Source: Verrucomicrobiia bacterium
Lineage (GTDB): Bacteria > Verrucomicrobiota > Verrucomicrobiia > Opitutales > Cerasicoccaceae
DNA length: 64,000 nt
Direction: 5' to 3'
Assembly (NCBI GenBank): GCA_030432235.1
Contig: JAUIHT010000004.1
Span: 62,001 to 126,000 of the forward strand
Under the pieces are notes generated by a model that was given only the letters and a program-made list of their open reading frames with translations, did not search any database and was not told the DNA's origin. The position numbers were made by a program, and so were the translations under genes. Positions 33,334 to 39,101 of this stretch are shown in pieces (position 1 is the first letter of the stretch; every line of letters begins with the position of its first letter).

Positions 33334-34367
33334 GTCTGGGCGGTTGCCCGTTGAGCGGGCGCGGCCTTGGCGGTGTCGGAGGGGCTCCGATCCACATTAG
33401 ACATCTTTTGGGGTAAGCGCAGAGTGGCTAATGTCAACATCCATGTGGCCGCCAGGAGGAAAGCGCCGAAAACCATGTGGTTGGAGGCCATGACCGGATT
33501 CTTGTGCGTCCAGATGGTGGCCGCGCCGAGAAATATCTGCACGAAGAGCAGCCCGCAGACCGTCCAGGCCAGCCAGCCAAGGGGCTTGCGGGTGGTTTCC
33601 GTACCGAGGATTCTGCCCACGAACAAAACGACATGGACGGTCACGACCACGGCCCAGGCCCGGTGCAGCCAGTTAATCGTCACCGGAAACGACCAGTGGG
33701 CGGGGAAAAGCCCCCCTTCAGGAGTCAGGGGAAAGGTCGGGATGGCCAGCCCGGCATGGGCGTGCCGCATCACTGCCCCCAGCAGAATCTGGATAAAAAT
33801 GGCCGCCACCGCCAGCACGCCCAAGCGCCGAATTTTAGCCGAGACCGGTGCCACCAGCCCGCAGGCGCGCTCCAGCCAGGCGCGTGAGTTCGTTGTGGCG
33901 TTGGCCACGAGCAGGCAGACGGTCACCTGAGCCCCGCAGGCGTGCAGCACGGCAAAGGTTTGCGCGACCACATTGCTATCCCATCCGGTATTGAGCCTGT
34001 CCAGCAGGACGCGCAACCCGCCGAGGACCCCTTGAAAAACCACCATGCCCAGGACGCCCCAGGCCAGGCCCCGACGCCACCGCTCCGCCGCGCGGAGCTG
34101 CGTCCACACCACCATGCCGATGGCCAGCAGGCCGAGCTTGGCCCCGAGCAGGCGGTGGCTGTGCTCGGCGCGCATGGCCTCGTTGGTCAGCCAGCCGTCG
34201 GGGTTGATGGAGGAGTTCGACAGCGGCCAGTCCAGGAAGGCCATCCCCGCCTGAATGCTCGTGGTGTAGGCCCCGGCGTACAACAGCAGGATGGCCCACA
34301 CCGCCGCGAAGACCGCGAAGATGAAATAGCCACGCTGGTAGCCAGTCTGTCGATTGAGCAGGGGCAT
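33330..34367 (-). CDS. ctaA: Haem A synthase (COX15/CtaA family)
   Basis: It oxidises the methyl group of haem O to the formyl group of haem A. The 345-residue protein has eight membrane segments and the four axial His in expected contexts: EHSHRLLGAKLGL, HACGAQVTVCLL, HRAWAVVVTVHVVLF and NHMVFGAFLLA. Two-fold repeat layout is visible. It is divergent from the Sco gene; the two longest frames overlap at their starts, which is one reason to prefer the internal Sco start. Confidence 0.94.
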   Translation of the reverse strand: MPLLNRQTGYQRGYFIFAVFAAVWAILLLYAGAYTTSIQAGMAFLDWPLSNSSINPDGWLTNEAMRAEHSHRLLGAKLGLLAIGMVVWTQLRAAERWRRGLAWGVLGMVVFQGVLGGLRVLLDRLNTGWDSNVVAQTFAVLHACGAQVTVCLLVANATTNSRAWLERACGLVAPVSAKIRRLGVLAVAAIFIQILLGAVMRHAHAGLAIPTFPLTPEGGLFPAHWSFPVTINWLHRAWAVVVTVHVVLFVGRILGTETTRKPLGWLAWTVCGLLFVQIFLGAATIWTHKNPVMASNHMVFGAFLLAATWMLTLATLRLPQKMSNVDRSPSDTAKAAPAQRATAQT

Positions 34368-34407
34368 CTCTATTGAACTTTCCGGGAAAAGTGATGACTA
34401 TTTAGGG

Positions 34408-35238
34408 ATGCTCGGAAAATTGCAAATCCCGTTGGCGGTCATTACCGCGGCTACTTTCACCGTCCTGGCGCAGGCCAAGGAAATCACCGCCACCGTCGAA
34501 AGCGTCGACACCGAGGCCCGCACGCTCACCCTCGACAACGGCCAAACCGTCCAGGTCGCTCCGGGTGATGCCGCCATCGGCTATGAGGGCAAACAAATCC
34601 GCGGCCAGTTGAACACCGGCTCCAAACCTCCCAAGCTGGACTTCATCTGGCCCGCCGACCCGCAGGAGGAAAAAGTCGCCGCCGGCATCAATCAGCTCCT
34701 GCACAACGACACCGTCACGCGTGGACGCAGTGCCTACCGCGGAGTCGGCGACCCCATCCCTGACTTCGCCCTCTACAACGAGAACGGCGAGCTCGTCACG
34801 GCCAAGAGCCTGCGCGGCAAGAACCTCGTCATGAACTTCATCTTCACCCGCTGCGCCGTGCCCACCATGTGCCCGGCCTCCATCGCCCGCATGAGCCGCC
34901 TCCAGCGCGAGGCCGCCGAGGCCGGCGTCGCGAACGTGGAGTTCGTCACCTTCACCTTCGACCCGGAGTTCGACACGCCCGGCGTACTGCGCCTCTACGG
35001 TCAGACACGCGGCCTCAACCTGGACAACTACACCCTCCTCACCGGCGACCCCGACGCCATCAAAGACCTCATGAAGCAGTTCGCCATCCTGACCATGGAA
35101 AGCGACGACACCATCAACCACACCATGGCCACGCTCATCGTCAACGAACACGGCAACATCACCTACCGCAAAGACGGCTCCCGCTGGAGCACCCAGGATT
35201 TTTTAGAGCGACTGCAAGCGATGGAGGAGAAGGAATAA
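34408..35238 (+). CDS. Sco1/SenC/PrrC-family copper chaperone
   Basis: The ATG at 34408 gives a signal peptide (MLGKLQIPLAVITAATFTVL then AQA) and avoids overlap with ctaA; a longer frame starts at 34354. Residues 25-85 form a copper-binding-like beta domain (KEITATVESVDTEARTLTL). The thioredoxin-fold Sco domain follows, with IFTRCAVPTMCPAS (Cys149 and Cys155) and a distal His in DTINHTMATLIV. The Cys spacing is CX5C, not the usual CX3C of Sco1. It most likely delivers copper to the CuA site of cytochrome oxidase, in keeping with the adjacent haem A genes. Confidence 0.87.
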   Translation: MLGKLQIPLAVITAATFTVLAQAKEITATVESVDTEARTLTLDNGQTVQVAPGDAAIGYEGKQIRGQLNTGSKPPKLDFIWPADPQEEKVAAGINQLLHNDTVTRGRSAYRGVGDPIPDFALYNENGELVTAKSLRGKNLVMNFIFTRCAVPTMCPASIARMSRLQREAAEAGVANVEFVTFTFDPEFDTPGVLRLYGQTRGLNLDNYTLLTGDPDAIKDLMKQFAILTMESDDTINHTMATLIVNEHGNITYRKDGSRWSTQDFLERLQAMEEKE

Positions 35239-35255
35239 TAAGCTATGAGATGACC

Positions 35256-36137
35256 TTACTCCATCCAATTTAGATTCCTACCAATCACAAGCTCAGTCAT
35301 TTGTGCATGATGAGTATTCTTCATTGGTATCGGTTTTGATTGAAAATGAAATCGATTCGCTAATGCCTTAACTTCTTCAGCATTATCATACGTCATGATA
35401 AAATCACCCTTCAATTGACTGCATGCATGAAACAATGCCTCATGATCTAGGTTGAAATGCGTATAAAGGCGATTACCTGCCTTTTTACCACCAGCGGTGT
35501 AAGGTGGATCAATAAAGTATACAGCGTTAGCTTGTTCCTTAAGTCGATCTAGCACATCAAATGCGTCGCCTTGCTCAAAACGTAGTCTTTCTCTCACCAA
35601 GTCCAGCGCCCTAAAGCGCTTAGCTAGGGTACTGGGATACCACCTCGAACGTATACCTTTGCCAGCTTCTCCGTTCTTCAGGAACCCAGAACCTGAAGCC
35701 AAAATTCCTCCATGAAATGTACGGTTTTTTATTATGGTTTGAAATGCTATCTCCCTGACATCTGTTTGTTTTTTATGTAGAGTTTCAATGGCATTTTCTT
35801 TTGTCATTTCAAAATCAAGAATTCGCCTGGCTAGCCATTCCCCATGACCTTTAATAACACATTGCCAAACCGCAGCTATTTCCTCATCTAGCTCTACCAT
35901 CAGAACCTCATCAGCCAAATTTTCACAAGCGGCTGTTAGGGATACAATTCCTCCACCAGCAAAAGGCTCAATCAATAGATTAGGCGTGTAAGGCAAGCTC
36001 CTCAACCATTCCCGTAACCTAGGTATAAACCAGGTTTTTCCTCCAGGATAGCGAAAAGGGCTACGCTGTGGCACCGATGCAACATTGATTGCCTTTTCAG
36101 CCTCATGTTGCTCTTCAAATAACAGGCTTTGTTTCAC
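35256..36137 (-). CDS. D12-class (Dam-type) adenine-specific DNA methyltransferase
   Basis: The 293-residue protein carries FRYPGGK (28-34, SAM-binding motif of Dam/D12 enzymes), the Gly-rich IEPFAGGG, and the catalytic DPPY (210-213), in the order of alpha-class N6-adenine methyltransferases. It starts with GTG at 36137, directly after the TAA of the restriction gene and in the same frame; GGAG at 36144-36147 lies six bases before the GTG and supports separate initiation. It protects host DNA from the NotI-like nuclease. Base composition is clearly more AT-rich than the neighbours. Confidence 0.9.
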   Translation of the reverse strand: MKQSLLFEEQHEAEKAINVASVPQRSPFRYPGGKTWFIPRLREWLRSLPYTPNLLIEPFAGGGIVSLTAACENLADEVLMVELDEEIAAVWQCVIKGHGEWLARRILDFEMTKENAIETLHKKQTDVREIAFQTIIKNRTFHGGILASGSGFLKNGEAGKGIRSRWYPSTLAKRFRALDLVRERLRFEQGDAFDVLDRLKEQANAVYFIDPPYTAGGKKAGNRLYTHFNLDHEALFHACSQLKGDFIMTYDNAEEVKALANRFHFQSKPIPMKNTHHAQMTELVIGRNLNWME

Positions 36138-36147
36138 TTAGCTCTCC
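36135..36147 (-). promoter_or_regulatory. Ribosome site and GTG start at the R-M junction
   Basis: On the minus strand the order is GGAG, six bases including the restriction gene's TAA, then GTG. The Shine-Dalgarno lies inside the last codons of the restriction gene, so the methyltransferase is probably translated by coupled re-initiation. Confidence 0.6.
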
Positions 36148-37034
36148 AATGGGTTTTCCACTGTATTATTTGTCGGCTCAGATTCCAGCTTTTCATCCAC
36201 TTTGGATTGAAGTTTATTCATGAATATTTCAAGTCGCCCAACTTTTGGTGTAGTTATCACGTTCAAGGAATCATTGAAACGCGTGTAGACCGTTTTTATC
36301 CGTTGGAGCGAAAACCCTGCTTTTTCATCGTTTGGCAGTAGGTCATATACTAACCAGGCAACTTCTGCATCTTTTTCCGGCACCTCTTCCAATGCAGGTA
36401 ATGTTGCAAAAAAGGCACTATCTAGTGCGACTGCCATTTTTTTGCCCCATGCATTCAATATGCCTCCTTTAAAGATCATTTGTGGTGCCAAACGCTTTCT
36501 GGATGAGGACAGGAAATCAGGCCGTGGATAATTTGGCTGCGAAGACCAATCCATAGTGGCTCGATCAGTTGGTTTTTCCATGTAGTAAGCATACGGATCT
36601 CGAACATTTCCTGAAATATAAACTGCTTGAACCTCCAAGGAACCAAAATCGTAAACTTGGCCTTTATCATCGTATGCAACAAGAACTACGTCAATATTAC
36701 CCGCAGATTTGCCATCTGCGTCGTTCAATCTGACTTCGGTTAACGAGGTCCAAGATGCATTTTCAGGAAAGAAAAACGATGCCGCGTCTTCGGCGATTAA
36801 CCAATTTTCTCGAAATCGAATAGGACAGGTAATAACAGGCCCCGAATTTGTGTTAATGCTACACACACCCAGCGGATCTTTAGCCTTATCTTTGGTGCAG
36901 TTTGGCACCTTGTTATTATACGGACAGAGTCTGTTTTTCCGAAACCGCTTTGCATTGCTACTCATATCAGCAGGTACGTGACCAAACACTTCCGCTAAAG
37001 GCTGCTTACCTATTTCCATTTTTCGAATCATCAA
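36138..37034 (-). CDS. NotI-family type II restriction endonuclease
   Basis: The 298-residue protein matches the NotI family: LAEVFG at the N-terminus, a four-Cys metal-binding fold (Cys37 in NRLCPYNN, Cys46 in PNCTK, Cys58 in GVCSI, Cys70 in ITCPIRF), and a PD-(D/E)xK-type catalytic core with Glu100 (TEVRLND), Asp115 (GNIDVVLV) and Glu134-x-Gln136 (LEVQAVYISG). The Glu-15-Asp spacing equals that which I recall for NotI (E145, D160). It is shorter than NotI (383 residues). Either ATG at 37034 or the one 15 bases downstream could be the start. It pairs with the adjoining adenine methyltransferase. Confidence 0.88.
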   Translation of the reverse strand: MMIRKMEIGKQPLAEVFGHVPADMSSNAKRFRKNRLCPYNNKVPNCTKDKAKDPLGVCSINTNSGPVITCPIRFRENWLIAEDAASFFFPENASWTSLTEVRLNDADGKSAGNIDVVLVAYDDKGQVYDFGSLEVQAVYISGNVRDPYAYYMEKPTDRATMDWSSQPNYPRPDFLSSSRKRLAPQMIFKGGILNAWGKKMAVALDSAFFATLPALEEVPEKDAEVAWLVYDLLPNDEKAGFSLQRIKTVYTRFNDSLNVITTPKVGRLEIFMNKLQSKVDEKLESEPTNNTVENPLES

Positions 37035-37477
37035 TAAATCTACAGCATCGTCAAGCGATGGCTTTATGTAAGAATATAGGGTGAGTCAAGAGACGGCAAG
37101 AGGATCAGACATTCTCTCTTTTCGCAAAAATCTAGCAAATGGCCCGAGGCTCACTTTTTTCTCAGAAAAATAGCCCAATAAAACGAAATTTCCCAACGCA
37201 GCCAAAAGACCCAAGGTAACTATTGGTGGCCTGTGATAGTATCATGGGCATGACTACAAAACGACCGACACGGCCGCCCTGACGAGGAGCCCATTCACCG
37301 AAACGCGGAACCTGTTTTTTCAGACGGGCCCCTGGCGTTCATCCGCCTGCTTTACCGATTCAGCGTATGGCAGGGCATGGAAAGCGACCAATGGATGTGT
37401 GCTTAAATGGATGAATCGAACCTGGGATACGGATGGAAGGCGGGGGATGCCGGACGGCTGTTCTTTGAAATATAGGC
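37035..37477. other. Intergenic region upstream of the restriction gene; no gene seen
   Basis: The left part (to about 37250) is AT-rich like the R-M genes and probably holds their promoter. TTGACT lies on the minus strand near 37087-37092 but no convincing -10 is placed. The right part returns to the GC-rich composition of the host. No controller (C-protein) gene, mobile-element gene or flanking direct repeat was recognised. Confidence 0.5.

Positions 37478-39025: not shown

Positions 39026-39101
<76 letters not shown>

What the first reader, a model, noticed from the sequence alone, without database searches (positions are those of the whole stretch)
35256..37034. NotI-like restriction enzyme paired with an adenine methyltransferase
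NotI itself recognises GCGGCCGC, which contains no adenine. A D12 adenine methyltransferase as partner implies the target of this system includes an A, so the NotI-type four-Cys nuclease here should have a different specificity, possibly a new rare cutter. Catalytic residues and all four metal-site cysteines are present.
Basis: partly seen in the sequence, partly recalled or inferred. Interest (0 to 1): 0.65.

Follow-up and report, generated by a model that had tools for sequence, protein, structure and literature searches.

The report
NotI-type restriction system, uncertain methylated base
This is a real two-gene DNA-cutting defence system related to the laboratory enzyme NotI, but its protective partner, labelled an adenine methylase, may well mark cytosine, so the label does not show that the system cuts a new, adenine-containing sequence.

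Summary
36138-37034(-) is a NotI-family nuclease (Pfam NotI, E 8e-60; its model matches DNA-bound NotI, Z 20.8) with all four metal-site cysteines and the E/D/E-x-Q active-site residues. 35256-36137(-) is a D12 methyltransferase with DPPY. The pair recurs widely.

The inference 'D12, so adenine, so a new A-containing site' is not secure. (1) The nearest solved relative of the methyltransferase is M.CbeI, also annotated D12 with DPPY, yet reported to make N4-methylcytosine in GGCC, the core of NotI's GCGGCCGC. (2) NotI-type nucleases 83% identical to each other are paired with a D12 enzyme on one plasmid and with a C5-cytosine methyltransferase on another; on a 53-row tree the partner class changes six times (at least four on well-supported branches). 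(3) The stretches taken as recognition regions are more conserved than the whole proteins in both partner families, across nuclease clades. The simplest reading is one shared, probably GGCC-centred target protected by two chemistries, D12 most likely making m4C. An A-containing site is not excluded: there is no methylome, M.CbeI is not the window enzyme's sister group, and site-avoidance counts were uninformative. The locus is another member of a known kind; the partner swapping is the interesting part.

The parts
36138..37034 (-). NotI-family Type II restriction endonuclease, 298 codons from TTG 37034 (likelier start ATG 37031)
   Evidence: Pfam NotI 8.2e-60; profile of 14 relatives finds NotI 3bvq/3c25 as the only PDB sequence match, E 2.9e-10; model pLDDT 87, Foldseek top hits 3c25/3bvq, VIA-align Z 20.8 over 269 residues
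36825..36926 (-). stretch C37 to C70 with the four metal-site cysteines (C37, C46, C58, C70)
   Evidence: conserved with NotI
36627..36737 (-). stretch E100 to Q136 with the active-site residues E100, D115, E134-x-Q136
   Evidence: invariant in 52 of 52 relatives and in NotI; role from alignment and recall
36459..36521 (-). residues 172-192, helix with invariant K180 R181 Q185 K189, probable DNA-contact element
   Evidence: invariant in 52 of 52 and in NotI; contact role is inference
35256..36137 (-). alpha-class (D12) amino-methyltransferase, 293 codons from GTG, starts directly after the nuclease stop
   Evidence: MethyltransfD12 7.5e-13; closest PDB sequence 7m6b = M.CbeI; model Z 25.2 to 7m6b, 22.9 to E. 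coli Dam
35616..35726 (-). residues 138-174, stretch taken here as the target-recognition region of the methyltransferase
   Evidence: 65% identical on average between W-type and Achromobacter-type partners against 49% over the whole protein; role by analogy with the Dam family (recall)
35499..35510 (-). catalytic DPPY motif (residues 210-213)
   Evidence: invariant in the 23-row alignment; also present in M.CbeI (PMC3425538 passages)

Best explanation
The two genes form a Type II restriction-modification system. The nuclease is a NotI-fold enzyme with a Cys4 metal site and an E/D/E-x-Q active site (shown by sequence and model; activity not tested). The downstream D12 gene is its protective methyltransferase (inferred from recurrent adjacency). 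The target is probably shared with relatives that use a C5-cytosine methyltransferase instead, and is probably centred on GGCC, such as CGGCCG or GCGGCCGC (inferred). On such a GC-only target the D12 enzyme would have to act as an N4-cytosine methyltransferase, as reported for M.CbeI, rather than as an adenine methyltransferase (inferred).
For: Adjacency: 28 of 38 loci outside IMG/VR have a D12 gene or fragment beside the nuclease, 8 a C5 gene, 2 (contig ends) neither visible; among IMG/VR contigs 11 have nuclease plus D12 and 18 nuclease plus C5. Partner swap: Paraburkholderia nuclease L018 (C5 partner, with a Vsr gene beside it) is 83% and 79% identical to nucleases L019 and L017 (D12 partners) (83 and 80% in the alignment); the stretch PDYRSSGPKRLMPQLQIKVPT is identical in L017, L019 (D12) and L018, L189-L191 (C5). 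The tree of 52 nucleases plus NotI needs 6 partner changes, at least 4 forced by starred branches. D12 exchange between nuclease subclades: the L062 and L055 methyltransferases are 75% identical while their nucleases are 28% identical. Stretches taken as recognition regions are more conserved than whole proteins: C5 partners of clade 1 against clade 2, 69% against 49%; D12 partners, W-type against Achromobacter-type, 65% against 49%. NotI groups with the C5-paired clade 2 at 100/100. Nearest solved relative of the D12 enzyme is M.CbeI: E 3.6e-14 against 2.6e-4 for DpnM and 0.005 for E. coli Dam; Z 25.2 against 22.9.
Against: No methylome or cleavage data. In the methyltransferase tree M.CbeI is not the sister of this group: uncharacterised plasmid D12 enzymes lie nearer, and the E. 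coli Dam branch is too long to trust. M.CbeI may lead the PDB list only because few D12 enzymes have been solved; Foldseek E-values of M.CbeI and Dam are close (3.2e-13 and 5.2e-12). NotI sits on a very long branch (4.3 changes per column), and what NotI's own methyltransferase looks like was not tested, so the link from clade 2 to GCGGCCGC is indirect. Conserved stretches may be conserved for structural reasons. No direct swap was seen inside the window's own subclade: 18 of 18 rows there are D12. CGGCCG and GCGGCCGC are not specifically avoided in genomes with the system.
Confidence: 0.55

Rival explanations
1. One reading: the D12 enzyme makes m6A, the target contains an A, and the nuclease has a specificity different from NotI. 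To fit the swaps, the target would contain both an A and a C, so that D12 and C5 enzymes can each protect it.
For: D12/DPPY enzymes are mostly adenine methyltransferases (general knowledge; Pfam and NCBI labels); the D12-paired clade 1 is well separated from NotI's clade with QAVY-SG in place of QT-D--G after the active site.
Against: M.CbeI precedent; 18 of 18 invariant residues shared with NotI; C5 partners of clade 1 share their recognition stretch with those of NotI's clade.
Confidence: 0.25
2. Mixed view: the target has a GGCC-type core with an A in an outer position (for example an 8-bp palindrome that extends CGGCCG), so the C5 enzyme protects through the core and the D12 enzyme through the outer A.
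For: Fits both the swaps and the usual meaning of D12; NotI itself reads two base pairs beyond the CGGCCG core.
Against: Needs two methyltransferases of different site length for one nuclease; the example palindromes ACGGCCGT and TCGGCCGA are not depleted in the window's genome sample (5 of 5.6 and 8 of 8.6 expected), although GCGGCCGC is not clearly depleted either (10 of 15.5).
Confidence: 0.12
3. The pair is not a working restriction system: the nuclease is inactive or the two genes do not share a target.
For: No activity data; in some relatives the nuclease is broken or shortened while the methyltransferase stays open (L064, L067, L061).
Against: All active-site and metal-site residues are intact in the window, both frames are open, and the pairing recurs across many phyla.
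Confidence: 0.05

Closest known systems
NotI restriction endonuclease (PDB 3bvq, 3c25; target GCGGCCGC)
   Same: Pfam family; fold (Z 20.8, 269 residues aligned); 18 of 18 family-invariant residues
   Different: About 17% identity over the structural alignment; the window protein is shorter (298 against 383 residues) and lies in another clade; target untested
Thermus brockianus plasmid pTbrSNM4-1c NotI-family/D12 pair
   Same: Same two genes in the same order; nuclease 61%, methyltransferase 54.5% identical
   Different: Plasmid of a thermophile; not characterised in anything I saw
M.CbeI of Caldicellulosiruptor bescii (PDB 7m6b) and DmtB of Anabaena, alpha-class N4-cytosine methyltransferases for GGCC
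   Same: D12 annotation, DPPY, same fold, best PDB match by sequence and by model
   Different: About 20% identity; different recognition stretch; separate branch of the tree; partnered with a GGCC nuclease, CbeI, not with a NotI-family one
E. coli Dam and DpnM (m6A in GATC)
   Same: D12/Dam fold (Z 22.9 and 22.1)
   Different: Weaker sequence match (E 0.005 and 2.6e-4); NCBIfam dam model reached only 38.6 of 114.85 bits
NotI-family nucleases with C5-cytosine partners (Paraburkholderia pBN5, Sedimenticola, Pseudomonas, phage vB_Pae_U8)
   Same: Same nuclease family; two of them (L018, L016) fall among D12-paired nucleases
   Different: m5C-type methyltransferase, in pBN5 with a Vsr repair gene

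Membership tests
NotI restriction endonuclease family (PF12183) | match to the family model above its curated cut-off | tested here: met
   202.5 bits against 22
NotI restriction endonuclease family (PF12183) | four metal-site cysteines and E/D/E-x-Q active site | tested here: met
NotI restriction endonuclease family (PF12183) | NotI fold | tested here: met
   Foldseek E 2.2e-10, Z 20.8
NotI isoschizomer (cuts GCGGCCGC) | target sequence | not testable with these tools
   no methylome or assay; avoidance counts uninformative
D12 / alpha-class DNA amino-methyltransferase | model match and DPPY motif | tested here: met
   7.5e-13, 49.2 bits against 22; DPPY invariant
Dam-type adenine methyltransferase | NCBIfam dam subfamily cut-off | tested here: not met
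   38.6 bits against 114.85
M.CbeI/DmtB-type N4-cytosine methyltransferase | groups with M.CbeI rather than with other D12 enzymes | tested here: inconclusive
   best PDB match, but not the sister group in a tree with long branches
M.CbeI/DmtB-type N4-cytosine methyltransferase | makes m4C | not testable with these tools
   needs methylome or base analysis
Type II restriction-modification system | nuclease adjacent to a dedicated methyltransferase | tested here: met
Type II restriction-modification system | cleavage blocked by the partner's methylation | not testable with these tools
   bench test

The most novel reading that the evidence does not exclude
NotI-type nucleases guard one conserved GC-only, GGCC-centred target that has been protected, with at least four exchanges, by two unrelated chemistries: m5C from C5 enzymes and m4C from a widespread D12 clade that is labelled 'DNA adenine methylase' in the plasmid records read here. 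If so, many such labels in this clade are wrong.
Probability: 0.5. Interest if true: 0.5.

Novelty: new member of a known kind. Interest (0 to 1): 0.4.

Why it matters
If the D12 clade makes m4C, automatic labels (DNA adenine methylase, GO 'methylation on adenine') mislead specificity predictions for a whole group of restriction systems, and the group offers a natural experiment in which one nuclease has been kept while its protective chemistry was exchanged. One methylome or one protection assay decides between them.

Tried and rejected
Site avoidance: palindrome counts against a maximal-order Markov expectation in 464 kb of the window's genome and in 60-200 kb samples of eight other genomes. 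CGGCCG was low in the window's genome (146 against 274 expected) but equally low in a relative without the system (91 against 167), and the ratios in the other D12-type genomes ran from 0.43 to 0.82; GCGGCCGC was 10 against 15.5. Judged uninformative. Other palindromes (GATC, CAGCTG) are lower there but cannot be tied to this locus.

D12 genes without a NotI gene: in the Bdellovibrio and Deinococcus plasmids (L021, L022) I looked for another nuclease that would reveal the site; the neighbours are PHP/DnaE-like or unassigned proteins, none a recognisable nuclease.

NotI's DNA contacts: the structure paper is not held, so contact residues could not be mapped; the classification paper is not held either. 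Literature searches for NotI-family systems, M.NotI or a CGGCCG m4C methylome gave in their listings no characterised NotI/D12 pair; this covers only the held open-access library. A low-frequency m4C motif YCGGCCGRV in Sinorhizobium meliloti (PMC11711589, passages) could not be linked to this family.

Close relatives of the single window nuclease in viral contigs: none; profile searches found them. A sequence I recalled as EagI (CGGCCG cutter) was compared: its 11 best rows are all the C5-paired clade 2 (131-153 bits, next 61), but no record matched it above 60%, so the EagI label is recall only and no weight is put on it.

Full report
Observation. The two ORFs are where the finding puts them, both on the minus strand. 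The first, 36138-37034, is a NotI-family nuclease (PF12183, 8.2e-60); the second, 35256-36137, is a D12-class methyltransferase (7.5e-13) that begins with GTG directly after the nuclease stop codon. The nuclease most likely starts at the ATG one codon inside the TTG. A structure model of the nuclease made with 22 relatives (pLDDT 87) matches NotI with and without DNA above all other PDB chains (Foldseek E 2.2e-10; Z 20.8, rmsd 3.3, 269 residues). Of 52 aligned relatives, 18 columns are invariant, and NotI has the same residue at all 18. They hold the acidic/Gln active-site residues, three of the four cysteines (the fourth is at 98%) and a K-R-x-x-x-Q-x-x-x-K helix.

Setting. The pair lies between a SCO1-like gene (34354-35238, plus strand) and a DUF445-like gene (names for neighbours are mine, from the ORF translations). 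In the 11 relatives whose SCO1 loci were fetched with about 1.5 kb on each side, Cox15 is next to SCO1 in 8 and neither restriction gene is found in any, so the pair looks like an insertion in the window's lineage. Local GC is 0.50-0.55 against 0.56 in a 464-kb sample. The family is sparse: 9 of 387 genomes in a phylum sample and 23 of 384 in a class sample have it (5 genomes are in both lists), 0 of 14 controls.

Who partners with whom. Partner: D12 in 28 (two of them fragments), C5-cytosine in 8, none visible in 2 that end at a contig end. In IMG/VR, 11 contigs have nuclease plus D12 (four of them with the same scores, so probably near-copies) and 18 have nuclease plus C5.

Partner swaps. 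For a tree I used 52 nucleases (30 of full length from the first set, 22 of 29 viral contigs; partial genes and near-copies left out) plus NotI. NotI falls with 11 C5-paired nucleases (100/100). The other 41 rows, clade 1, hold 31 D12-paired and 10 C5-paired nucleases. The label needs 6 changes on the tree; starred branches force at least 4. The sharpest case: the Paraburkholderia pBN5 nuclease has a C5 partner and a Vsr gene, while nucleases 83% and 79% identical to it on Aeromonas and Achromobacter plasmids have D12 partners. The 21 residues around the K-R helix are identical in both kinds. Such close nucleases very probably share a target, so D12 and C5 enzymes can protect the same site. 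In the window's own subclade all 18 rows are D12, so there the link to C5 is indirect: it runs through the D12 enzymes, which are about 49% identical between subclades with 65% in the stretch taken as recognition region, and which have themselves been exchanged between nuclease subclades (L062 and L055: methyltransferases 75%, nucleases 28% identical). The C5 partners of clade 1 and of NotI's clade 2 are 49% identical overall and 69% in the recognition stretch, with RSDHTKRYGR in 19 of the 20 sequences compared (RGDHTKRYGR in the other).

Which base is methylated. The only argument for an A in the target is the D12 label. The closest PDB sequence to the window enzyme is 7m6b (with a 23-row profile 3.6e-14, against 2.6e-4 for DpnM and 0.005 for E. 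coli Dam), and the model's best match is the same chain (Foldseek; Z 25.2 against 22.9 for Dam). 7M6B is M.CbeI (passages of PMC8616854), which was annotated as a D12 adenine enzyme, has DPPY, and is reported to make N4-methylcytosine in GGCC; its authors group it with DmtB of Anabaena (PMC3425538). GGCC is the centre of GCGGCCGC. Against this: in a tree of 37 D12 proteins the 27-row window group (25 from NotI loci, 2 without a NotI gene seen) is one clade (100/99), but uncharacterised plasmid enzymes lie nearer to it than M.CbeI does, and several branches including Dam's are too long to trust. The Foldseek E-values for M.CbeI and Dam are within a factor of about 20. So the M.CbeI link removes the force of the D12 label; it does not show m4C.

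Weighing. If clade 1 and NotI's clade share a GGCC-type core, as the C5 partners and the invariant residues suggest, D12 cannot act on an A inside that core; it must make m4C or use an A outside it. I put about 0.55 on a GGCC-centred target with m4C, 0.25 on m6A in an A-containing target, 0.12 on a core plus an outer A. The weak links are that NotI is very distant (branch 4.3) and that NotI's own methyltransferase was not examined. Site-avoidance counts in nine genomes gave nothing usable.

Verdict. A genuine, probably horizontally acquired NotI-family restriction system; another member of a known kind. What deserves follow-up is the repeated exchange of protective chemistry around one nuclease family.

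Noticed in passing
window genome sample (L069-L088 plus window): GATC is at 0.62 of expectation (1306 of 2118) and CAGCTG at 0.36 (51 of 143), lower than in two relatives (GATC 0.90 and 0.88; CAGCTG 0.60 and 0.97). May point to other restriction systems in this genome.
   Followed up: no
L055-L059, L062, L067 (methyltransferase N-terminus): These D12 partners carry an extra N-terminal stretch of roughly 70 residues (TTVIRVP...) that resembles a ribbon-helix-helix domain to my eye; Pfam finds nothing there in the four proteins tested (L059, L017, L062, L056). Could be a fused autoregulator.
   Followed up: partly
L021, L022, L179, L180, L182, L184: D12 enzymes of this clade without a NotI gene in the stretch held, on plasmids (L021, L022) and viral contigs; possibly protective methyltransferases of mobile elements. 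L022 has a weak, below cut-off match to the restriction alleviation protein Lar beside it.
   Followed up: partly
L060, L061, L064, L067: Nuclease frames broken or shortened while the D12 frame stays open in L061, L064 and L067; in L060 both are in pieces.
   Followed up: no
L023 (Pseudomonas phage vB_Pae_U8) and 29 IMG/VR contigs: NotI-family restriction pairs occur on phage and viral contigs.
   Followed up: no
window 37271-37276: A CGGCCG palindrome (as GCGGCCGT) lies in the intergenic stretch upstream of the nuclease gene; such sites are common at this GC content.
   Followed up: no
window 39026-39101: tRNA-Phe gene, the only tRNA in the window, about 2 kb from the restriction pair.
   Followed up: no
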